A DNA stretch of 64,000 nucleotides from a virus, in IMG/VR virus record IMGVR_UViG_3300023179_000016, positions 89,400 to 153,399 of that record; one strand, 5' to 3'. Position numbers and translations under genes: made by a program. The notes beneath the pieces were generated by a model. That model was not told where the DNA came from and did not search any database. It saw nothing but the letters and a program-made list of their open reading frames with translations. Positions 25,413 to 60,182 of the stretch are shown here, piece by piece. Each line of letters begins with the position of its first letter. The stretch's first letter is position 1.

Positions 25413-25952
25413 ATGAGACAGCCCAATAAAGCGTGTATAGATATAATCAAGTCATTTGAAGGTCTTTTTCTTAAGCCTTATCTATGTCCAGCTGGAATAC
25501 CAACTATAGGTTACGGCACCATTAGATACCCTGATGGCACATCTGTCTCTTTAAAAGATTCCCCAATATCTGAACAAGATGCAGAAAGATACCTGATGCA
25601 TGAGATAAACGAGAAAGCAAACGGCGTCGAGTCGCTTTTAACTATAAAAGTATCCGACAACGAATTTGGTGCTCTAGTGTCTTTTGCCTACAACCTTGGT
25701 CTAGGTAATCTTAAAAAATCCACTCTATTAAAGATATTAAACGCTGACGCAGACAGACAAAAAATCGGAGATGAATTCTTAAAATGGAATAAGGCTGCCG
25801 GTAAAGAACTATCTGGTCTTACTAGACGTAGACAGGCAGAGAGAGCACTTTTTCTTCAACCAGACACTTCTCCATCTAATTTGCCAGAAGGTCCTTCAGA
25901 TAAAGAGATAGAAGAAAAACTCGAACAGATAGAAAAAGATATAACATCTTAA
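25413..25952 (+). CDS. GH24 lysozyme (endolysin), Glu-Cys-Thr variant
   Basis: A 179-aa muramidase that cleaves peptidoglycan glycan strands for lysis. The T4-lysozyme family triad is visible with the right spacing, E16-x8-C25-x5-T31, in 'SFEG...YLCPAGIPTIGYGT'. The second residue is Cys instead of T4's Asp20, a variant known in several phage lysozymes. 'FNLG/YNLGLGNLKKSTLL' and 'LTRRRQAERALF' are the usual later family blocks. There is no signal peptide or SAR segment, so release would need a holin; none is obvious in the window. About 30 acidic residues follow the domain. The ATG has a promoter box 7 bases upstream and no ribosome site. Confidence 0.9.
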   Translation: MRQPNKACIDIIKSFEGLFLKPYLCPAGIPTIGYGTIRYPDGTSVSLKDSPISEQDAERYLMHEINEKANGVESLLTIKVSDNEFGALVSFAYNLGLGNLKKSTLLKILNADADRQKIGDEFLKWNKAAGKELSGLTRRRQAERALFLQPDTSPSNLPEGPSDKEIEEKLEQIEKDITS

Positions 25953-47747: not shown

Positions 47748-48521
47748 ATGGCATTGATTATTCTTGAAGGATTAGATCGCACTGGCAAATCAACAGTGGC
47801 AAGATATTACGAAAGTCTTGGATATCATTTAATCCACATGTCGGCTCCTTCTAAAGGCACAACAGCAGATCAATATCTTCAAGATATCACTGATCTATTG
47901 TCCTCTGCTTCCACAAGAGACATAGTATTAGATAGATCTCATTATGGCGAATTAATATGGTCATCGGTCTATGGTAGATCTTCACTTTTGACAGAAGAAG
48001 ATATAGAATCTCTAGCGGAGATAGAAACAGCCGTAGGCGTCAAAAGAATACTTATGGTTGATCCAAACGTTGAAGCACATTGGAATAGATGTGTTGAAAA
48101 TAATGAACCGTTGACTAAAGCCCAATTCATCAAGGCAAGATCCCTTTATTATCAAATGGCCCAAAAGTTTAACTTTGAAAGTCAAAATCTGCCGCAATTC
48201 TTAAGACTAAATCCGGATGCAGAATCTATTTCTAAAATAGACAGCGGCGACAACGATATTGTTACAACAGATGAGACAAAAAAATCTAAAACACCAGAAC
48301 AATTAAAACTAGAAAAGGCAAACGCAATAAACGATATTCTGTCTAAAAGAATTTTAAAGCAAAAAGGCGACACATACGAAGATTTAGAGCGCGATATTAG
48401 AAACTTTTTAAATGCAAAATTAGGTAAACTTTTTGGCGACACGTCTGACTTAGGTTTTACAAGTGAAGAAATTAAATTTTACAAGACAATGTATAAAAAG
48501 GCAACTAAAAAAGGGGAATGA
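47748..48521 (+). CDS. Thymidylate kinase-like P-loop kinase with C-terminal extension
   Basis: A 257-aa protein. The P-loop 'GLDRTGKST' (8-16) and 'VLDRSHYGELIWSSVYGR' (the DRY/DRS-type nucleobase and lid region) match dTMP/dNMP kinases. Residues ~1-165 form the kinase core; ~166-257 are an additional, charged helical region ('TYEDLERDIRNFLNAKLGKLFG') not part of the usual ~210-aa enzyme. It likely phosphorylates a deoxynucleoside monophosphate. It lies within the packaging operon, apart from the second kinase at 54582, and the two share little beyond the fold. Substrate not certain. Confidence 0.75.
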   Translation: MALIILEGLDRTGKSTVARYYESLGYHLIHMSAPSKGTTADQYLQDITDLLSSASTRDIVLDRSHYGELIWSSVYGRSSLLTEEDIESLAEIETAVGVKRILMVDPNVEAHWNRCVENNEPLTKAQFIKARSLYYQMAQKFNFESQNLPQFLRLNPDAESISKIDSGDNDIVTTDETKKSKTPEQLKLEKANAINDILSKRILKQKGDTYEDLERDIRNFLNAKLGKLFGDTSDLGFTSEEIKFYKTMYKKATKKGE

Positions 48522-48523
48522 AG

Positions 48524-49093
48524 ATGAAGGGATTTAAACTGCACGAACAACCGTCCAAAAAAACTCAAATTAAACAACTTGAGACAGAATTAAAAAATTC
48601 TCAAGTTGCCAATAGAATGTCTCAACTAATGATTCAACAGTTGGTCAACAGCGTAAAATCTATTGGAGATGATTTAAATACTGCTGTGAGTAGATTGTAC
48701 GAGTTGCAGTATAAATACGATGCATTGAGACAGTATTTAAATGCAGACGTAAATAACTTAAATGATATTGCAAATCAACTTCGCCTAAAAGATTTTCAAG
48801 AGGCAGCAGAGAGAGCAGATCTTCAAGAAGAATTGCAGACGGTAGAGACTGCCACAGAAGATAGCACTGTAGTACTGACCTCTACTGCCAAAGATGAAAA
48901 TAACGTCGATAAGGGCATATTTAGATCCAGAGTTAAACTGTCTGAGTCAGGTTCTCCAGATCTCATCAGCAAACTCTTAGGTAAAAAAGTTGGCGATAAG
49001 GTCTTAGTTAAGTTAAATAACTTAGATCATACCGTAGAACTTCTTTCTGTAAAGAATGGGCCAACTAAAGCTGATCCGGAGACTACACACTAA
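48524..49093 (+). CDS. Gre-like coiled-coil protein (transcript cleavage factor C-domain)
   Basis: The ATG at 48524 (189 aa) has AGGGG seven bases upstream; the ATG at 48518 is too close to that site. The first ~105 residues are a helical hairpin-type coiled coil. The C-terminal ~50 residues ('FRSRVKLSESGSPDLISKLLGKKVGDKVLVKL...HTVELLSVK') match the FKBP-like C-terminal domain of GreA/GreB, where 'SP...ALLGKKVGDEV' and a closing 'YEIL.I' strand are diagnostic. Gre factors bind the RNA polymerase secondary channel. The acidic tip residues of GreA's coiled coil are not clearly conserved, so cleavage activity is uncertain. A sigma region-4-like gene follows directly. Confidence 0.6.
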   Translation: MKGFKLHEQPSKKTQIKQLETELKNSQVANRMSQLMIQQLVNSVKSIGDDLNTAVSRLYELQYKYDALRQYLNADVNNLNDIANQLRLKDFQEAAERADLQEELQTVETATEDSTVVLTSTAKDENNVDKGIFRSRVKLSESGSPDLISKLLGKKVGDKVLVKLNNLDHTVELLSVKNGPTKADPETTH

Positions 49094-49491
49094 TGAAGGG
49101 TTGTAAAATGGATTCTAGGTGCCCTAGAAATCTTAAAGAGACACCAGATGACTGGTGTCCTCTTGCTGTTTTAAGGCTAAAAGCTATAAGAAATGCTGGC
49201 AGGGAACTAACAGAATCTGAAGAAGCTAAACTACCAGGTTGTCCGTGGGCTATTGATCATCAATTGGCCAATTATTGTTTTTTTAAATATATTAACGAAT
49301 TTTCTAATGGTAAACCTGCTACGGATATAGAGTTAGCAGCCCTGCTAAACATTTCTCCTGAATCCGTTAAAAGAATAGAAAGATCTGGTTTAAATAAATT
49401 AAAATACAGCAATTCGTTCTCGAATATGAAGACGCAAGACGGTCCTATAGTGGAAGAAAAAGACGACAGTACCTATAAAGTACATAAGTAA
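49093..49491 (+). CDS. Small sigma-70 region-4-like protein with cysteine-rich N-terminus
   Basis: A 132-aa protein (ATG at 49093 on a TAATG overlap; an alternative ATG at 49108 has AAGGG upstream). Residues ~75-107 read 'PATDIELAALLNISPESVKRIERSGLNKLK', a near-textbook region 4.2 helix-turn-helix, which in sigma factors contacts the -35 box and the RNA polymerase beta flap. The N-terminal ~65 residues carry C4, C10, C22, C50 and C62 with 'PGCPWAIDHQLANYCFFKY', a likely zinc or Fe-S binding module. No region 2 is present. It could act like T4 gp33 as a detached region-4 co-activator, which is inference. Confidence 0.65.
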   Translation: MKGCKMDSRCPRNLKETPDDWCPLAVLRLKAIRNAGRELTESEEAKLPGCPWAIDHQLANYCFFKYINEFSNGKPATDIELAALLNISPESVKRIERSGLNKLKYSNSFSNMKTQDGPIVEEKDDSTYKVHK

Positions 49492-49818: not shown

Positions 49819-51513
49819 ATGGCTAAAAAACCTTTAGAAATAGATATGATAGCTGGTTCTCAATTGAGAGACACTCAAGGTGAAATGTTGAGTGTTGAGG
49901 GAGCTGATATAAGCGATTTGCAGGCCGGTAAAGGTCGATTAAACGATAATCACGGAAAAGGCTTCTTTAATTCGATTGGTACAGTAACAGACGCAAAAAA
50001 AATATTTAAAAAAGAAGACTGCGAGAACGACCGCCACTCCTACTATTGGGATAAGGTGAAGGCACCCTTTATATACGTTAGAGGTTATCTCTTCGACGAC
50101 GAAGATCATCCCAACGCAAGAGCCGCTGCAGCAATATTAAGAAACATCCATAAAAATGATTCGCCTCTTCAACTAAAAGCTTCTGTAGAGGGTGGAGTGT
50201 TAGCAAGAGGCATATCTGACAATACATTGCTTGCAAAAACAAAGATACATTCAGTCGCCCTAACATTCACTCCAGCCAATAAAAATACTCTTGTAGAGCC
50301 TGTCAGTCTAGATAAAACTTCTTTCAATGAAGAAGAGGACACCAGAATAATAAAATCTGTGCTTCATCTAGCAAAAACTAATGTTCCTTCTTTTAGACAC
50401 ATAGTAAGAGATGCTGCAGCTCAAAAGATAGAAGATAACTTAAACAAGATATCTGATTTATCTAAAAAACTTGGATTGCCGCAAAATTTTTCTAATATAT
50501 CCAAGCAGTCCATCTTGGAAAACGCAATAGAAGACAAAATAAAGCACAATGTTGCATTGATTCATTCTATTATCACTGGATCAGAAGATTTAGACAAGGG
50601 TTTAAAAGAAACTGGATTAGCTGCTGCACTTAGTGCAGGTTTAATGGCCTCTACTCCACAACAGGCAGAAGCAAAAAGATATAATCCACCTGTCGCTAAA
50701 AGACCCATTAGTGCGGTTGTAAATAAAAAACCGAAATTAGGTTCAATGGTCATAAGAAATAATGATCACGCTCCTCATATTGCTATGTATGAAAAAGTTA
50801 AACAAACCAATCCATTTTTGGGAATTACAGGTTTTATCGAATCTTCTGGCGGACTTCAGCACGATGGACATATAACCTTAACAGCTAAAGATATGAATTA
50901 TGGTCATACTGCTGGAGGAATATGGGCGATGTTACCAAATCATGCGGCCTTTACTATCTCAAAAGATAAACAGTTAGCCGCCAAATATCCGCAATTAGCT
51001 AAATTAGCAAAAACAGTAAAAAATAAAAATTTCAAACATCACATATTCACCAACACATTTAATAAAGACCCTCAAGCTGCGGCAGATTTTGCAATATCTG
51101 CCTATAATTATTTGCGCACTAAATTTAAAAGTTACGATGCCATGGCTGCAGCATGGAATATCGGAATCAGCGGAACAATGAAATTGCTTAAAAATGGCAA
51201 AAATGCATTAGCAAATTTAGGATATGTTCAAAAATTTAGAAAAGGGTATCGTGAATATTTGAATCAGAGAAGACTTGCGTCTGATCGGGCAGATAATATG
51301 TCAAAAGCTTTGATGGCTGGATATGGTGGCGGATCTGCACCGACATCAAGAGTGGGTGGCGCGGTATTGCAATCCGAGTGGTCACCTAAGTCATTGAAAT
51401 ATATAACATGTGACAGATGCGGAAAAGAACAAGTTCACGCAAAATATCAAGTTAAGTGTAGACATTGTAATGATAATTTTAGTTTAAAAAAATTAAATGA
51501 AATTTTAAGTTAA
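49819..51513 (+). CDS. Prohead protease fused to lytic-transglycosylase-like and zinc-ribbon domains
   Basis: A 564-aa multidomain protein. Residues ~1-165 are a prohead serine protease: catalytic His in 'NDNHGKGFFNSIGTVT' (H45), Ser in 'KASVEGGV' (S122), then 'KIHSVALTFTPANKNT'. Residues ~165-265 are helical. Residues ~266-285 are a hydrophobic stretch ending 'QQAEA', looking like an internal signal/anchor. Residues ~310-475 resemble a soluble lytic transglycosylase ('GITGFIESSGG' with candidate catalytic E341, 'AMAAAWNIGISG'). Residues ~528-555 form a zinc ribbon (C531, C534, C547, C550). Its place before scaffold and capsid genes fits the protease. The autoproteolytic fate of the fused parts is unknown. 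Confidence 0.72.
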   Translation: MAKKPLEIDMIAGSQLRDTQGEMLSVEGADISDLQAGKGRLNDNHGKGFFNSIGTVTDAKKIFKKEDCENDRHSYYWDKVKAPFIYVRGYLFDDEDHPNARAAAAILRNIHKNDSPLQLKASVEGGVLARGISDNTLLAKTKIHSVALTFTPANKNTLVEPVSLDKTSFNEEEDTRIIKSVLHLAKTNVPSFRHIVRDAAAQKIEDNLNKISDLSKKLGLPQNFSNISKQSILENAIEDKIKHNVALIHSIITGSEDLDKGLKETGLAAALSAGLMASTPQQAEAKRYNPPVAKRPISAVVNKKPKLGSMVIRNNDHAPHIAMYEKVKQTNPFLGITGFIESSGGLQHDGHITLTAKDMNYGHTAGGIWAMLPNHAAFTISKDKQLAAKYPQLAKLAKTVKNKNFKHHIFTNTFNKDPQAAADFAISAYNYLRTKFKSYDAMAAAWNIGISGTMKLLKNGKNALANLGYVQKFRKGYREYLNQRRLASDRADNMSKALMAGYGGGSAPTSRVGGAVLQSEWSPKSLKYITCDRCGKEQVHAKYQVKCRHCNDNFSLKKLNEILS

Positions 51514-52044: not shown

Positions 52045-52860
52045 ATGGACGAACAGCTAACAAAGAGTCTGACTGATCTGATCGATGAAACTCTCAGTGA
52101 ACTAGAAGAGCTTCGCAAATCAAAGATGTCAGCTGCTGAAATTAAGTTAGAGGGCCCTGGCGAAGGAATCGCAGGTAAACCTTCCGACGGTAAACTTGAT
52201 GCTAAAAAGGCAGACGACGAAGACGAAGAAGAGTCTGAAGACGAAGATGAAGAGGCTGAAAAGGCTGAAGCAGAAAAATCTGAAGACGAAGGCCACGATG
52301 AAGATGATCCTGCAGATAAGCCTTCAACTGGTCGTAAATTAAAAGCTATCATGGAATCCAAGAAGTCTGAAGACGCAGATGATGCCGATGAAGACGAAGA
52401 AGAAGACGAAGTTGAAAAGTCTTGGAAGATGGACAAGAAAGAAAAGAAAGACGACGACAAAAAGGAACCCCATAAGGACGACCCAAAGCATGAAGAAAAA
52501 GAGAAGAAAATTGCGAAAAAACTTCTCGAAATGCATAAGTCTACCGAAGAGGTTGGCTCTCTAATGAAGAGCTATGTCGAAGAGCGGATTAAACCGTTCG
52601 AAGAAAAACTCGAGACCATCCTCGAGCTCGTCAATTCAATTGCTGAGCAGCCAGTTGCCCCAAAGGGTGTTACCGTCAAGACGGCGCCACTCCTCAAGTC
52701 CTCTACTGCTGAGTATGGTGAAGTACTTTCAAAAGCCGAAATCGCAAACAAGCTTTTTGAACTTAAAAAGTCTGGCACTCGCGTTGATTCCTTAGATATC
52801 GCTAAGGTTGAAATGGGTCAAGACCTTGTTAACATTGTTAAAAAATACGATATTTCGTAA
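52045..52860 (+). CDS. Acidic prohead scaffold/core protein
   Basis: A 271-aa protein between protease and capsid genes. Residues ~40-165 are an Asp/Glu/Lys-rich low-complexity tract, giving a very acidic, disordered core. Residues ~165-205 are a coiled coil ('LLEMHKSTEEVGSLMKSYVEERI', 'FEEKLETILELVNSI'). The C-terminal ~60 residues are ordered and may bind the capsid shell. Such charged, helical proteins between protease and MCP are the internal scaffold (compare T4 gp22), to be degraded by the protease. Confidence 0.75.
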   Translation: MDEQLTKSLTDLIDETLSELEELRKSKMSAAEIKLEGPGEGIAGKPSDGKLDAKKADDEDEEESEDEDEEAEKAEAEKSEDEGHDEDDPADKPSTGRKLKAIMESKKSEDADDADEDEEEDEVEKSWKMDKKEKKDDDKKEPHKDDPKHEEKEKKIAKKLLEMHKSTEEVGSLMKSYVEERIKPFEEKLETILELVNSIAEQPVAPKGVTVKTAPLLKSSTAEYGEVLSKAEIANKLFELKKSGTRVDSLDIAKVEMGQDLVNIVKKYDIS

Positions 52861-52878: not shown

Positions 52879-54330
52879 ATGATGAACGATGCAGTTAATC
52901 AAATTTTACAGGGACTTGACCAGGGTCTGGTATCTCAGGCCGACGTCGAAGCCCTAAATAAGGCAATCACTGCCGGTTATGGTGGCGCAGGTAAACCTAC
53001 CGATCTAACCTACGGCGGTGTTCTTCAGGCTGAATCTCTCGAGGCAACCCTCAAGAGCGTCACCTTCGACATGAAGAATCTAAAAATGTGGCCAGCAATA
53101 TCAGTCGATAAGGCCTACAATCTCTTCGAGCAGTACAATCGCTTAATCAGCTACGGTTCTGATTCTGCGCCTTACCTCGGTGAAGGTGGAGCTCCTATCG
53201 AAGAAGATTCGACATATGTTCGTGACGGACAGAAGATCGTGTTCTTCGGAACTCGTCGTAAGGTTTCGCACCAGATGACGCTGGTCCGTACCACGGTCGG
53301 TGATGTCGTCGCTCAACAGGCAAAAGAAGGTACTATGCATCTTCTGAAAAACGTTGAACGCGAAATGTACTGGGGTCATGCCCACTTCATTGGTCGTCTC
53401 GACGGCGCTAACGACGGCAGCGATGCTGCTCTCCCAGCCAACAGCATCGCCATGAGCGGCCTTCTAAAGCAGCTCAAAAAAGGCGATACTGATGTTCTTC
53501 AGCGCTCTGGCGACTTTGAAGGATACGGTGATGCTCAGTCCATCGTTCAAGATCTCGGCGGAGCAGTTATTGCTCAAGACGATCTAGAGCGTCTTGCAGT
53601 TATCGCGCTTGAAAACTTCGGTTCTCCAAGCGAACTGCATATCGAGCCTGCTGCCCTGTCGTCATTCGTCAAGCAGTTCTATCCTCAGTTCCGTTCTGCT
53701 CCAGGTCTCTCAAATGAGACTGTCGGTTACAGCGTGAACAAGATGACTACCACTGCGGGCGTCATCGACTTCAAACCTAACCTCTTCCTCCGTCCTCGTG
53801 CAGGCGCTCGCGCACTCGCTGTCAGTGCACTCGCTCCTTCGCTCGGATCTCTCGGTGTGGCAACTGCTGCAACGGGTTCTGGTTCTGCTCTCGGTGCAGG
53901 CGTTTACCAAGTTAAGGTTACGCTCGTCAACGACGCAGGCGAATCAATTCCACTTCAGGCTGCTGCAGTTACTCTTACTGCGGGTCAGAAGATTCAGCTC
54001 ACTGTTACTAACATGCCCGCTGGTGTTAAGCACATGAAAGCTTATATCTCTGCACCAGGCGGCGCAGTTGGAACCGAAAAATTCGCAGGCAATCTTGCAA
54101 ACGCTGGCAATACTACCTATGTACTTGCTGGTCGTAAGCAGGCTGGTCTCGGCGAAGCATTCCTCCTCGACATGAGCGCTGAATGCATGAAGTTCAAACA
54201 ACTTGCACCTCTCAGCAAGATTAACTTCGCAATCGTCACCACTGCACTTGAATTTGCGATCGTCATGTACGGAGCTCTCTTCGTATATACTCCTCGCTTC
54301 AACTGTGTGATGGAAAACGTTGGCAAGTAA
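52879..54330 (+). CDS. Major capsid protein with Ig-like domain
   Basis: A 483-aa protein, ATG with AAAGGAG upstream (a second ATG follows at once). It follows the scaffold and is ended by a strong terminator, as expected for a highly expressed capsid gene. The N-terminal half has helical and strand patterns of HK97-fold shells with 'KNVEREMYWGHAHFIG' and 'LSSFVKQFYPQFRSAPG'. Residues ~318-420 form an inserted beta-sandwich ('SGSALGAGVYQVKVTLVNDAGESIP', 'ITLTNMPAGVKHMKAYIS'-type strands), similar to Ig/fibronectin-like capsid decorations. Codons are strongly biased to C- and G-ending triplets (CTC, ATC, GTC) unlike most neighbours, consistent with expression-driven optimisation. Confidence 0.85.
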   Translation: MMNDAVNQILQGLDQGLVSQADVEALNKAITAGYGGAGKPTDLTYGGVLQAESLEATLKSVTFDMKNLKMWPAISVDKAYNLFEQYNRLISYGSDSAPYLGEGGAPIEEDSTYVRDGQKIVFFGTRRKVSHQMTLVRTTVGDVVAQQAKEGTMHLLKNVEREMYWGHAHFIGRLDGANDGSDAALPANSIAMSGLLKQLKKGDTDVLQRSGDFEGYGDAQSIVQDLGGAVIAQDDLERLAVIALENFGSPSELHIEPAALSSFVKQFYPQFRSAPGLSNETVGYSVNKMTTTAGVIDFKPNLFLRPRAGARALAVSALAPSLGSLGVATAATGSGSALGAGVYQVKVTLVNDAGESIPLQAAAVTLTAGQKIQLTVTNMPAGVKHMKAYISAPGGAVGTEKFAGNLANAGNTTYVLAGRKQAGLGEAFLLDMSAECMKFKQLAPLSKINFAIVTTALEFAIVMYGALFVYTPRFNCVMENVGK

Positions 54331-54581: not shown

Positions 54582-55283
54582 ATGAAAAAAGCGATTTATG
54601 TGTGCGTTGAGGGCGTTGAAGGTGTCGGAAAAACTACACAAGTAGAGTTATTAACAATCAAATTGAAAGAGCTTGGCTTTAAGGTTTTAAAAACTAAAGA
54701 ACCAGGCACACCTCATCTTCCAATTACCATGAAGATGCGCGAATTAATGTTAAGTAATGAGTTCGACAATCAATTGACAAAAAATTCTAGGGAACTCATC
54801 AGTCAAGCAATAAGATCTATTCACATCGAAAAATTAATAATTCCCTCCATGTTTGAATATGACTTTATAATTCAAGATAGAGGTGTATTGAGCGGTTATT
54901 CATATGGCGTATCGTGTGGAAATGATATAGAATATCTTAAACTATTAACTAAAAACTCTATAACTAATGCTCTCAACGCTGGAGACAATGATTTTAATCA
55001 AAGGGTAGAATATATACCAGAATCTATTTATGATTTAGTAATACTTCTAGATGGAGACGTAGAAGATTCTCTCAATAAGGCTATCTCTTCAAAGAATGAA
55101 TTTGAGGCAGGCGACGCCATGGAGTCTCGCGGATTGCAATTCATAAATCGTGTTGCTGATACTATGAAAGAGTATTCATTGATGTTTAATGTTAATAGGA
55201 TTTTAGTGAACAACAAAACTGCTCCTGAAGTTAATCAGGAAATAATGTACGCTGTATTAGGTAAATATAATGAAAAAAAATAA
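54582..55283 (+). CDS. tmk: Thymidylate kinase
   Basis: A 233-aa dTMP kinase converting dTMP to dTDP. P-loop 'GVEGVGKTTQ' near residues 9-18, the substrate-binding 'KTKEPGTPHLP', the DR motif in 'IIQDRGVLSGYSYG' and a LID-like region around 150-175 match the family, including the conserved Glu-Pro-Gly and Asp-Arg. Length is near normal. AGAGATAAGG precedes the ATG. The dUTPase at 26512 and the kinase at 47748 belong to the same pathway. The last 14 bases overlap the exonuclease gene. Confidence 0.88.
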   Translation: MKKAIYVCVEGVEGVGKTTQVELLTIKLKELGFKVLKTKEPGTPHLPITMKMRELMLSNEFDNQLTKNSRELISQAIRSIHIEKLIIPSMFEYDFIIQDRGVLSGYSYGVSCGNDIEYLKLLTKNSITNALNAGDNDFNQRVEYIPESIYDLVILLDGDVEDSLNKAISSKNEFEAGDAMESRGLQFINRVADTMKEYSLMFNVNRILVNNKTAPEVNQEIMYAVLGKYNEKK

Positions 55284-57024: not shown

Positions 57025-58257
57025 ATGAAAACATCTAGTTTTAAAAAAATTCTATTAAGAAAAGTCGAAGGTGATCTTAAACTAACTACTCTTATATCTT
57101 CTTGCACTGGAGAGTTTTTAACTAACAAGATAATAGAGTCATTAGAAAAGATGGCTGCACCTGGAAAAAATACAGGTAGAAATGCCAATTCTGCGATTAC
57201 AAATTTTGCACAAAGACTTTCCAATAGAGATGTTGAAATGATGAGAGATGCCTTAGGACATCATGTTTCTGCTCATAAAGCAGAATTAAAAGCCGGAAAT
57301 AGACAAGCAGCGGATGCACATTTAAATAAGATAATCCCATTAATGCATTTAATGGCTAGAACTGCAGCACATTCTGGTGGAAAACTAGCTTTAGATTATG
57401 TTCCGCTAGAGCCATGGGAAACCAATTATACGGGTTTAGAGAGAAGACCAGAAACTGGAAAATTAAAAGAAGGAACTAAGGGATTAAGGAGACGACCCAG
57501 TAAAACCGATAGAATCTCAAACCCTAGAGGGGTTCCAGATTTTAGATATTTAGAGATGAAACCGCACCCAGGTCATTCAGATGTCAATACTTCTCCGCAT
57601 AAAGAAACCGCCTATCCGTTTGAGGAAATTCAGTTGGGTTCGCCCAGTGCTGTTGATTCTAAACAGGCATATCTACCTATTTCAAATATTCAAGCTACAG
57701 GTACGTTTAAACCTCATCCATTTGACGATCATCCTATACATAAATTAGCAGATTTAGAACAAGATAAAATTTCTAACGATACTATGAATAATTTTGGTAG
57801 CGCATTAGATAACTGGGTAAACCATGATTCATCTAAAAAATGGGGTGAATCCATTAAAAATCTATACGCGTCTAATCCAGAGTCTTATAAAAACAGAGGT
57901 AAACAAAAACCATCACATCATTTTGAAGGTATGAGTATTCTAGATCATCCGAAAGAGGTGGCAGAATATATATCTCAGAACCCAACATCTTCTGTTGAGT
58001 CAACTAAACTTAAAGAACCTAAATCAACTAGTTCAATTTTAACAGATGATCATATAAATGATCTACCGCCAGAATTGCAAAATCTAGGTAGACAGTTGCT
58101 TCAGGGACAAACTACCTCATCACGCATTACGCCATCACAGACCGCAATGTCCGATGAAGACATTGAAAAAGCATTTATAGGTGGAACACCAGAAGATCAG
58201 AAAAGACTTTGGCCACAATTTAAGCAGATTCAAGAAAAGAAACATGGAGCAAGATAA
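57025..58257 (+). CDS. Hypothetical virion-associated protein
   Basis: A 410-aa protein. Residues ~45-135 are helical and His/Ala-rich ('MMRDALGHHVSAHKAELKAGNRQAADAHLNKIIPLMHLM'). The rest is proline/serine-rich and low in hydrophobics, so probably extended ('RRPETGKLKEGTKGLRRRPSKTD', 'KPHPGHSDVNTSPHKETAYPFEE'). No catalytic motif or family recognised. It ends on a TAATG overlap with the next gene. Likely an internal head or injected protein by position. Confidence 0.55.
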   Translation: MKTSSFKKILLRKVEGDLKLTTLISSCTGEFLTNKIIESLEKMAAPGKNTGRNANSAITNFAQRLSNRDVEMMRDALGHHVSAHKAELKAGNRQAADAHLNKIIPLMHLMARTAAHSGGKLALDYVPLEPWETNYTGLERRPETGKLKEGTKGLRRRPSKTDRISNPRGVPDFRYLEMKPHPGHSDVNTSPHKETAYPFEEIQLGSPSAVDSKQAYLPISNIQATGTFKPHPFDDHPIHKLADLEQDKISNDTMNNFGSALDNWVNHDSSKKWGESIKNLYASNPESYKNRGKQKPSHHFEGMSILDHPKEVAEYISQNPTSSVESTKLKEPKSTSSILTDDHINDLPPELQNLGRQLLQGQTTSSRITPSQTAMSDEDIEKAFIGGTPEDQKRLWPQFKQIQEKKHGAR

Positions 58258-60182
58258 TGCCAGGTTTTGTTAGGTCTAAAAAAGACGAAGTTAAATGGAA
58301 TAAGGCTAAAAAATCAGTAAGTGAATCTAAGTCAAAAAAAGAAGAATCTTTTTCTGATAGAGATTGGGCTTTAGTTAATCATATTTACCATAATATGAGT
58401 AAATCTAATTCTATTGAGCTGTCTGAAATAGACAATATAGTGAATCATTTATATAATACTAAAAAGTTATTGAAAGCTAGAGATTACGAAGACAAAGACT
58501 ATGACCCAGAAGATATAAGTGGACTATCAATAAGAGACGAATCGGAAGATCCATATGCAGATGACTTATCTTCTTATGACAACGATGAATTATTAAATGA
58601 AGATGAAAATATAGAACCTGAAGACGATGAATCGCGAGATGTATATGGACAGATGACTGGAAGACCATCTGAATCAGAAAATGAAGAAGAACCCCAACAG
58701 GAAATTAAACCGGCAAAAAATATAGATCAAATCAAGTCGTCACCGGAATCTTCAATAGAGTCTCAAACTATCAACATGGACCCTGAAGACTACGAGAAAC
58801 TGCCATCAGAAATCAAAAAAAAATATAAATTAGCTGTTTCTGAAGAAAAACCAAAAATAATACCTAAATCCACCAGCGAAACTCAAATTGAACCGACTTC
58901 AAGATCGGCTGTTATTACAAGAAAACAAGGCCAACCTTCATCTAACCCATCCTTAGCATCTTTAAAGGATGAACCCTCGTTTTCCGAAAAAGAAGAAATG
59001 TTTGAACCAACGGTAGAAGAACTTAACGCTCTAAGAGAACACACTAGACCATGGGAACAGAGAGCCAGAGACACAATAAAATTACAAGCTGATCCCAGAA
59101 AAAATCCTGTTTTGGCTAAGGAAGGTGTTTTATTAGAAGCTACGCGTAACGCCCATAAGGATAGAAATCAAGCATATAGCGAATTGACTAATTCCGCTGC
59201 ATATAAAAACGCGGATCCAATTGCTCAAATGGAATTAGATGAAAAGTTTCATAGAGATTGGATAAGCGGCAATCCAGATCATACTGCAAATGCAATTAGA
59301 GCTCATGCTGATGCACATCAAATAGGCGATGAAAAGAAAAAAATATTTGATGCTCATAAAGAAGCTCAAATAAAAACTATCTTAGAGGGCGGAGCTATGC
59401 CAGAAGAAACATTTTCCACCGAAGCTGGCTTACAGCATGCAGGCGGCGCTAAGAGCGAAGAAGGCACGGCAGGATCCATGGTATCTGATCCATATTCTTC
59501 TTTTGCGATGGGCAACAAACAATTCGTTAAAGAATATGCAAAAAATTATACAGATAAAAATAAAAAAGCCTCTTCAACTGAAGATTTAGAAAACTATGAT
59601 ATAGGTGATAAAAAAGATATAAATAGAATATTAGGACCAGCTGCCGCAAAAAGTCCTTTAGTAGAAGACTTTTTTAAAAAATACAATAGACTAATAGCGA
59701 TAAATGCAAAAAATGCAATAAAGGCACTAGGTTTGCAAGAAAACCATCCTAACGTGGATATAGGATTACTTCATGAGGCGGGCATGCATGGTTTAATGCA
59801 AGCAGTTAATTCTTATGATCCCTCTAAAGGTGCTCAATTTAAAACATGGGCCTCTAGAGTGATAAAAGGTCTTCAGATGACTGCCTTAAATAATCAACAT
59901 GAAATACCACAGAGTATTAGAAGAGCAGCCAAAGATTTCAATAAAAAAAGAAGTGCGCAGCCTCAAATGTCCGCACCCACTCTCACACCTACTTCCGCAT
60001 CGACCACAACTGCGACTCCTACGTCCACTCCAGCATCCGCAAGTACCCCATCGGTTCAAAAACCAGCGGCGCCTCATGTAGTCATATCAGAATCCAAACA
60101 TCCAAATGCTCCCAAAATGGCAGAAGCAATAAAGAGAATAGACGCTCAAAGAAATGTCATAACAAGAAAGAGATCTGAATAG
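58257..60182 (+). CDS. Large acidic protein with embedded sigma-70 region-2-like domain
   Basis: A 641-aa protein. Residues ~1-250 are highly charged and low-complexity; ~250-380 are helical; ~470-565 match sigma-70 region 2: 'LIAINAKNAIKALGL', then 'LLHEAGMHGLMQAVNSYD', 'SKGAQFKTWASRVIKG', and 'EIPQSIRRAAKDF', corresponding to RpoD '[34 protein letters not shown]...RIPVHMIE'. The two tryptophans of RpoD that melt the -10 element are Arg-Val here. Residues ~570-610 are Pro/Ser/Thr-rich. It sits in an operon of virion-type genes, so it could be an injected or late transcription factor, or a structural protein that borrowed the fold. Regions 3 and 4 are absent. Confidence 0.68.
   Translation: MPGFVRSKKDEVKWNKAKKSVSESKSKKEESFSDRDWALVNHIYHNMSKSNSIELSEIDNIVNHLYNTKKLLKARDYEDKDYDPEDISGLSIRDESEDPYADDLSSYDNDELLNEDENIEPEDDESRDVYGQMTGRPSESENEEEPQQEIKPAKNIDQIKSSPESSIESQTINMDPEDYEKLPSEIKKKYKLAVSEEKPKIIPKSTSETQIEPTSRSAVITRKQGQPSSNPSLASLKDEPSFSEKEEMFEPTVEELNALREHTRPWEQRARDTIKLQADPRKNPVLAKEGVLLEATRNAHKDRNQAYSELTNSAAYKNADPIAQMELDEKFHRDWISGNPDHTANAIRAHADAHQIGDEKKKIFDAHKEAQIKTILEGGAMPEETFSTEAGLQHAGGAKSEEGTAGSMVSDPYSSFAMGNKQFVKEYAKNYTDKNKKASSTEDLENYDIGDKKDINRILGPAAAKSPLVEDFFKKYNRLIAINAKNAIKALGLQENHPNVDIGLLHEAGMHGLMQAVNSYDPSKGAQFKTWASRVIKGLQMTALNNQHEIPQSIRRAAKDFNKKRSAQPQMSAPTLTPTSASTTTATPTSTPASASTPSVQKPAAPHVVISESKHPNAPKMAEAIKRIDAQRNVITRKRSE

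What the first reader, a model, noticed from the sequence alone, without database searches (positions are those of the whole stretch)
49819..51513. Prohead protease fused to a transglycosylase-like domain and a zinc ribbon
A head-maturation protease (H45, S122) shares one chain with a peptidoglycan-lytase-like domain (candidate E341) and a Cys4 ribbon, joined by a signal-peptide-like hydrophobic stretch at ~266-285. A protease active inside the prohead could cleave itself off and leave the lytic domain in the head for ejection. This would couple head maturation to production of a wall-penetration enzyme.
Basis: partly seen in the sequence, partly recalled or inferred. Interest (0 to 1): 0.66.

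Follow-up and report, generated by a model that had tools for sequence, protein, structure and literature searches.

The report
Capsid protease carrying wall-cutting enzyme cargo
In this bacteriophage the enzyme that trims the newly built virus shell also carries a cell-wall-cutting enzyme and a short copy of the shell protein's own end, an arrangement that related phages reuse with other passenger domains, so the maturing shell could be loaded with an entry enzyme by the protease that matures it.

Summary
The ORF 49819-51513 (564 aa) is real and conserved. Residues 1-165 are a head-maturation protease (PHROG_1028, E 1e-12; H45 and S122 invariant). Residues 315-484 have a lytic-transglycosylase fold (AlphaFold pLDDT 94; Foldseek probability 1.00 to Cj0843) with E341 invariant in 22 relatives. 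The chain ends in a Cys4 ribbon. The "signal-peptide-like" stretch is only weakly hydrophobic.

(1) Between the lytic domain and the ribbon lies a copy of the phage's own major-capsid-protein (MCP) N-terminal arm (L-x-K-A-L-x-A-G-Y-G-G...). It recurs in almost every relative checked, including Herelleviridae and Mx1, and tracks each phage's own MCP. (2) The family carries L/M-x-K-[S/A/G] sites resembling the MCP maturation site (phi812's solved capsid chain starts after K24). The scaffold is the most site-enriched of 48 window ORFs. Conserved sites bracket the lytic domain (K260, K496).

The cargo slot is modular: lytic domain, none, helical linkers, GNAT-like, HEAT/LRV repeats; kinase-like in the Mx1 group.

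Most likely, a self-processing protease is brought into the prohead, frees its passenger there, and the passenger leaves with the DNA. Cleavage, virion retention and lytic activity are inferred, not shown. New variant of known kinds (prohead proteases, polyvalent/MuF cargo proteins).

The parts
49819..50313 (+). Head-maturation protease domain (residues 1-165; H45, S122)
   Evidence: PHROG_1028 E 1e-12; H45/S122 invariant in 22 aligned members; assemblin-like Foldseek matches
50314..50319 (+). Predicted self-cleavage site LDK166|T167 (LDK|S in most relatives)
   Evidence: site lists in about 45 relatives; P1 Lys inferred from the phi812 MCP chain start
50353..50358 (+). Predicted self-cleavage site IIK179|S180 (LIK|S in most relatives)
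   Evidence: S180 invariant, K179 in 20 of 22 aligned members
50359..50595 (+). Helical spacer (residues 181-259), conserved also in members without lytic cargo
   Evidence: alignments and model
50596..50601 (+). Predicted self-cleavage site LDK260|G261 upstream of the cargo
   Evidence: K260 invariant in 22 of 22 SLT-bearing members inside a variable linker
50602..50760 (+). Ala/Pro-rich disordered linker with weakly hydrophobic stretch (residues 262-314)
   Evidence: pLDDT below 50; best 19-residue hydropathy mean 0.76
50761..51270 (+). Lytic-transglycosylase-like cargo domain (residues 315-484; catalytic E341 at 50839-50841)
   Evidence: pLDDT 94; Foldseek probability 1.00 to Cj0843; E341 invariant
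51304..51309 (+). Predicted self-cleavage site MSK496|A497 downstream of the cargo
   Evidence: K496-A497 invariant in 22 of 22; same position as the MCP site LNK28|A29
51298..51384 (+). Copy of the MCP N-terminal arm (residues 494-522)
   Evidence: Smith-Waterman 90 vs own MCP, shuffle maximum 51; HMM of protease motifs finds MCPs at E 1e-14 to 1e-18
51391..51510 (+). Cys4 zinc-ribbon-like tail (C531, C534, C547, C550)
   Evidence: four Cys invariant; RPB12/S27e-type ribbons as weak matches
52045..52860 (+). Scaffold-like acidic protein, predicted main substrate of the protease
   Evidence: rank 1 of 48 window ORFs for [LIM]xK[SAG]: 7 vs 1.26 expected, p<=0.001
52879..54330 (+). Major capsid protein; predicted maturation site LNK28|A29 (52954-52965), arm about 52963-53040
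   Evidence: PHROG_752 E 5e-54; homologous to phi812 MCP, whose solved chain starts at S25

Best explanation
This is a self-processing prohead protease that also loads cargo. The full-length chain is brought into the prohead, plausibly through its C-terminal piece, which copies the capsid protein's N-terminal arm. Once active, the protease cuts after Lys in the motif [L/M/I]-x-K|[S/A/G]: in the scaffold, at the MCP N-terminus (K28|A29), and in itself (about K166/K179, K260, K496). Self-cutting frees a fragment of about 26 kDa (residues 261-496) holding the lytic transglycosylase. That fragment stays among the packaged DNA and is ejected at infection, where it would locally open peptidoglycan. 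In related phages the same slot holds other domains. Shown here by computation: the domain identities, the arm copy and its tracking of each phage's own MCP, the conserved bracketing sites, site enrichment in scaffolds, and cargo turnover on the protease tree. Inferred: actual cleavage, prohead targeting by the arm copy, virion retention, ejection and wall cutting.
For: Protease and lytic folds with invariant catalytic residues. An HMM built only from protease motifs finds MCP N-termini as its only strong targets besides proteases among 8363 ORFs (E 1e-14 to 1e-18). Protease vs own MCP matches exceed all shuffles in 11 of 12 phages and in 7 of 9 further loci tested, across clades whose motif text differs. 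phi812 MCP in PDB 9row starts at S25 of ...VVK24|SFQTGYG. Scaffolds: K-S 290 vs 121 expected, Leu two residues before in 69%; the window scaffold ranks first of 48 ORFs. Bracketing sites K260 and K496-A497 are invariant in 22 of 22. Cargo states need at least 7 changes on the protease tree. The genome has a separate endolysin at 25413 (PF00959, E 9e-39). Literature: the SPN3US protease removes its own 64-residue C-terminal propeptide (PMC10052503), inferred to target it to the prohead (PMC5694885). A head maturation protease is detected by mass spectrometry in Staphylococcus phage JS1 virions (PMC12977511).
Against: No cleavage, virion or enzyme data exist for any SLT-bearing member; no such phage appears in the phage collection. 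The window protein alone is not enriched in the motif (3 sites vs 1.9 expected, p 0.30); the case rests on conservation. Two of 22 members lack K179 (one Glu, one Arg). Pooled scaffold statistics use related sequences. The lytic match is structural: Pfam SLT misses this protein, and Foldseek E-values are weak (0.05) despite probability 1.00. The C-terminal piece could simply be discarded with no targeting role. Members without cargo show that the lytic domain is dispensable for the family.
Confidence: 0.55

Rival explanations
1. The arm copy and ribbon are only a removable C-terminal propeptide that carries the substrate-like sequence, keeping the protease inactive or targeted until self-cleavage. 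The lytic domain is a hitchhiker in the linker, with no programmed release or delivery.
For: SPN3US gp245 removes a 64-residue C-terminal propeptide by self-cleavage (PMC10052503). Members with no cargo keep the same C-terminal piece. The arm copy follows the protease directly in Herelleviridae.
Against: The catalytic Glu and fold are conserved in 22 divergent members (21-44% identity to the window copy in the domain). A second conserved site, K260, lies just upstream of the cargo. Several unrelated passengers occupy the slot.
Confidence: 0.25
2. The arm copy is an assembly piece: after cleavage the 68-residue arm-plus-ribbon fragment docks into the capsid lattice where an MCP arm would sit (for example near the portal vertex), and the lytic domain stays tethered to the inner shell before cutting.
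For: Similarity extends about 26 residues past the cleavage point and tracks each phage's own MCP. The MCP propeptide side is not copied.
Against: No structure of the complex; the arm region is disordered in the monomer model (pLDDT below 50). The known phi812 and SPO1 capsid structures were not examined for such density here.
Confidence: 0.25
3. The lytic domain helps host lysis at the end of infection rather than entry.
For: Lytic transglycosylase folds occur in phage lysis enzymes (Foldseek viral matches include endolysins).
Against: A dedicated phage lysozyme gene is present at 25413-25952. There is no convincing signal peptide or membrane span, and the gene lies in the head-assembly cluster, fused to the head protease.
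Confidence: 0.07
4. The fusion is ordinary domain shuffling and the lytic domain is inactive or structural.
For: Phage relatives that lack the domain exist; Pfam does not recognise the domain here.
Against: E341/S342 and several fold residues are invariant while overall identity drops to 21%; the fold is predicted with very high confidence.
Confidence: 0.12

Closest known systems
Herelleviridae (SPO1/Twort/A511-type) head maturation proteases, PHROG_1028
   Same: Same protease family and gene order (portal, protease, scaffold, MCP). They also carry the MCP-arm copy next to a K-S/K-A site.
   Different: About 200-270 aa, with no cargo domain and no Cys4 ribbon; a small helical tail follows the arm copy instead.
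SPN3US/phiKZ-type and T4 gp21 prohead proteases
   Same: They process scaffold, MCP and internal proteins. SPN3US gp245 self-removes a C-terminal propeptide (PMC10052503).
   Different: They cut after Glu (AxE in SPN3US; LxE/IxE in T4, own knowledge), not after Lys. Internal proteins are separate substrates rather than fused to the protease.
Polyvalent proteins (Iyer et al. 2017, PMC5512222)
   Same: Multidomain phage proteins predicted to be packaged and injected. They include lysozyme, GNAT, kinase and assemblin-like peptidase domains.
   Different: That paper places the assemblin-like peptidase always at the C-terminus; here it is N-terminal, is the phage's own head protease, and is joined to an MCP-arm copy.
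MuF polymorphic toxins (PMC5576092)
   Same: A head-assembly module fused to exchangeable C-terminal domains thought to be delivered from the head.
   Different: No MuF domain here; the carrier is the protease, the passenger sits between two predicted cleavage sites, and no immunity gene was identified.
Virion-internal transglycosylases (T7 gp16; own knowledge)
   Same: A peptidoglycan-cutting domain carried inside the head and ejected for entry.
   Different: T7 gp16 is a core protein of its own, not a passenger of the head protease.

Membership tests
Prohead (head maturation) protease, PHROG_1028 / assemblin-like | Sequence profile match over the protease domain | tested here: met
   PHROG_1028 residues 17-160, E 1e-12 on the N-terminal half
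Prohead (head maturation) protease, PHROG_1028 / assemblin-like | Conserved His and Ser, assemblin-like fold | tested here: met
   H45 and S122 invariant in 22; Foldseek herpesvirus protease pUL26N matches, best E 0.014 with probability 0.87
Prohead (head maturation) protease, PHROG_1028 / assemblin-like | Gene next to scaffold and MCP, after portal | tested here: met
   order portal 45683, protease 49819, scaffold-like 52045, MCP 52879
Prohead (head maturation) protease, PHROG_1028 / assemblin-like | Proteolysis of scaffold/MCP | not testable with these tools
   only site statistics: scaffold enrichment; phi812 MCP chain start K24|S25
Lytic transglycosylase, SLT/GEWL type (PF01464) | Lysozyme-like fold | tested here: met
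   Foldseek Cj0843 probability 1.00, TMq 0.52; MltD, SLT70 also matched
Lytic transglycosylase, SLT/GEWL type (PF01464) | Catalytic Glu in an E-S motif | tested here: met
   E341-S342 invariant in 22 of 22
Lytic transglycosylase, SLT/GEWL type (PF01464) | Pfam SLT match above curated cut-off | tested here: not met
   no match for this protein or in its genome; only 2 of 22 members match, best E 9.4e-6. Filed as SLT-like fold, not as a PF01464 member
Lytic transglycosylase, SLT/GEWL type (PF01464) | Peptidoglycan cleavage | not testable with these tools
   needs zymogram
Polyvalent proteins (PMC5512222) | Several unrelated effector/enzymatic domains in one phage chain encoded among virion genes | tested here: met
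   protease plus lytic domain; GNAT-like, HEAT/LRV and kinase-like passengers in relatives
Polyvalent proteins (PMC5512222) | Assemblin-like peptidase at the C-terminus | tested here: not met
   protease is N-terminal in the window protein and its relatives
MuF polymorphic toxins (PMC5576092) | MuF domain | tested here: not met
   no MuF match in the Pfam scan
T4-type packaged internal proteins | N-terminal targeting peptide removed at LxE/IxE | tested here: not met
   predicted sites are [LMI]xK|[SAG] and the capsid-like peptide is C-terminal

The most novel reading that the evidence does not exclude
A widespread class of head proteases uses a copy of the capsid protein's N-terminal arm as a docking and self-release tag, giving phages a plug-in slot for passenger enzymes that are loaded into every head and released by the same proteolysis that matures the shell. 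The wall-cutting enzyme here is one of several interchangeable passengers.
Probability: 0.35. Interest if true: 0.8.

Novelty: new variant of a known kind. Interest (0 to 1): 0.64.

Why it matters
If right, it gives a direct mechanism for loading enzymes into a phage head: the passenger is covalently part of the maturation protease and is freed by maturation itself. It also predicts, for Herelleviridae (SPO1, A511, phi812) and Mx1-type phages, a Lys-directed maturation specificity and self-cleavage in the protease. That would be easy to miss, because cleavage after Lys looks like trypsin in standard mass spectrometry. The arm copy raises a testable question about how head proteases are recruited to proheads, and the cargo slot suggests a modular delivery design for laboratory phages.

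Tried and rejected
Pfam and PHROG scans of the C-terminal half gave no lytic hit for this protein; structure prediction settled it. A profile search of PDB sequences with the lytic domain found nothing relevant. The idea that the hydrophobic stretch is a signal peptide or membrane anchor was rejected on hydropathy. The idea that the arm match to MCP is chance was rejected by shuffles and by HMM specificity. The idea that the arm copy is universal was rejected: Bacteroides phage DAC22 and L006 lack it, and L077 is borderline. Motif enrichment within the window protein alone is not significant, so it is not used as evidence. Literature searches for a prohead protease fused to a transglycosylase, or for an MCP-arm copy in a head protease, found none, but the library lacks most subscription papers.

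Full report
WHAT IS THERE. The window is bases 89400-153399 of a 153,399-base virus record. The ORF at 49819-51513 is intact, 564 aa, and lies in a head-assembly cluster: terminase 43702, portal 45683, this gene, a small gene 51613, an acidic scaffold-like gene 52045, and the major capsid protein (MCP) 52879.

THE TWO ENZYME DOMAINS. The N-terminal 165 residues match the head maturation protease family PHROG_1028 (E 1e-12). The full-length model resembles herpesvirus assemblin, and H45 and S122 are invariant in 22 aligned members. Residues 308-484 were modelled with an alignment of 22 members at mean pLDDT 94. Foldseek gives probability 1.00 to the lytic transglycosylase Cj0843, then MltD and SLT70, and phage SLT proteins in the viral library. 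E341-S342 is invariant although identity in the domain falls to 21%. Pfam's SLT profile misses this protein and sees only 2 of 22 members, so this is an SLT-like fold, not a recognised PF01464 member. The Cys4 ribbon is invariant. The hydrophobic stretch is Ala-rich but weak (best mean 0.76).

THE MISSED ELEMENT: A COPY OF THE CAPSID PROTEIN'S ARM. A search of the phage's own record with the protein returned, besides itself, the N-terminus of its own MCP. Residues 494-522 read MSKALMAGYGGGSAPTSRVGGAVLQSEWS, against LNKAITAGYGGAGKPTDLTYGGVLQAESLE in the MCP. Nearly all full-length relatives of this clade have it. An HMM built from 46 protease motifs was run against 8363 ORFs from all loci fetched by then. 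Apart from proteases, its strong hits were MCP N-termini alone (E 1e-14 to 1e-18). The shared block begins at the L-x-K site and runs about 26 residues downstream; the MCP propeptide upstream is not copied. Each phage's protease matches its own MCP beyond every shuffle in 11 of 12 phages, including phi812, Listeria List-36, SPO1L2 and Mx1, and in 7 of 9 more distant loci where an MCP was found. It does so even where the motif text differs (GYGG; GNFNAAPSTL; GSDINSPG-GFPLR; TGYGITPDTQ-ALRRE). DAC22 and L006 lack it and L077 is borderline.

THE LIKELY CUT SITE. In PDB 9row the phi812 MCP chain begins at S25, after ...VVK24, inside this same block. This is how the depositors wrote the chain; I did not read the underlying paper. 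In 38 distinct scaffold proteins K-S occurs 290 times against 121 expected, with Leu two residues before the Lys in 69%. Those proteins are related, so the z-score is inflated, but the window's own scaffold ranks first of 48 ORFs for [LIM]-x-K-[SAG] (7 vs 1.26, p<=0.001). In the protease family the same pattern recurs at LDK166, LIK179, L/M-E/D-K260 and L-x-K496 (pooled 209 vs 69 expected). K260 and K496-A497 are invariant in 22 of 22 SLT members, so they bracket the lytic domain. The window protein by itself is not significantly enriched.

A MODULAR PASSENGER SLOT. Of the relatives found, about 24 carry the lytic domain. Others have no passenger (325-348 aa), helical linkers, a GNAT-like passenger (L051), or HEAT/LRV repeats (L046, L054). 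In the Mx1 group a PI3/4-kinase-like domain follows the arm copy (Mx1 itself and L087; weak Pfam matches). On a tree of the protease domain the three cargo states need at least 7 changes, and the SLT label needs 3 changes on the best tree, although a single origin is not ruled out by the well-supported branches.

MECHANISM. The most economical reading is self-processing with cargo release inside the prohead, followed by ejection with DNA. Supporting context: the phage has its own endolysin at 25413, so the lytic domain is not needed for lysis. SPN3US gp245 removes its own C-terminal propeptide (PMC10052503), inferred to be its prohead-targeting region (PMC5694885). A head maturation protease is found in JS1 virions by mass spectrometry while the adjacent JS1_0012 is not listed (PMC12977511). 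Shown by computation: domains, arm copy, site conservation, modularity. Inferred: cleavage, targeting, virion retention, ejection, wall cutting.

NOVELTY. Carrier-plus-cargo head proteins are known (MuF, PMC5576092; polyvalent proteins, PMC5512222), as are N-terminal MCP processing and virion transglycosylases. The polyvalent-protein survey reports assemblin-like peptidases always at the C-terminus. I found no description of a head protease carrying a lytic domain or a copy of the MCP arm, within an open-access library only. Hence a new variant of a known kind.

Noticed in passing
window 58257-60182 and 49093-49491: A 641-aa protein in the head/neck cluster has a sigma-70 region 2 match (PF04542, E 3.3e-6), while a separate 132-aa gene has a region 4 match (E 2.5e-4): possibly a split sigma factor, one half perhaps virion-associated.
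   Followed up: partly
L010 7962-11681 (Mx1) and L087 4895-6766: Mx1-type head proteases carry a PI3/4-kinase-like C-terminal domain after the MCP-arm copy (PF00454, E 0.007 and 0.001, below cut-off). A gene annotated as nucleotide cyclase lies close downstream in Mx1.
   Followed up: partly
L046 7001-9805; L054 6995-9949: Protease relatives of 934 and 984 aa carry long HEAT/LRV repeat passengers; in L054 the insert lies between the arm copy and the ribbon, while its close sister L055 lacks it.
   Followed up: partly
L051 6998-9106: Passenger with GNAT acetyltransferase match (E 3.6e-4) followed by a second region that looks by eye like an ADP-ribosyltransferase (second part untested).
   Followed up: no
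L006, L043, L044, L051, L094, L105, L109, L115: The MCP gene lies on the strand opposite to the protease, unlike the window.
   Followed up: no
scaffold proteins of about 38 loci: K-Y is also enriched (40 vs 14 expected), unexplained.
   Followed up: no
window 47748-48521 and 54582-55283: Two nucleotide-kinase-like genes flank the head cluster (Thymidylate_kin E 0.006 and 1.7e-16).
   Followed up: no
BFVD A0A6J5KVM0: A 538-aa uncultured Caudovirales protein named 'PolyPPase_VTC_like domain containing' matches the lytic domain at 31% identity and TMq 0.86; probably an unrecognised member of this family.
   Followed up: no
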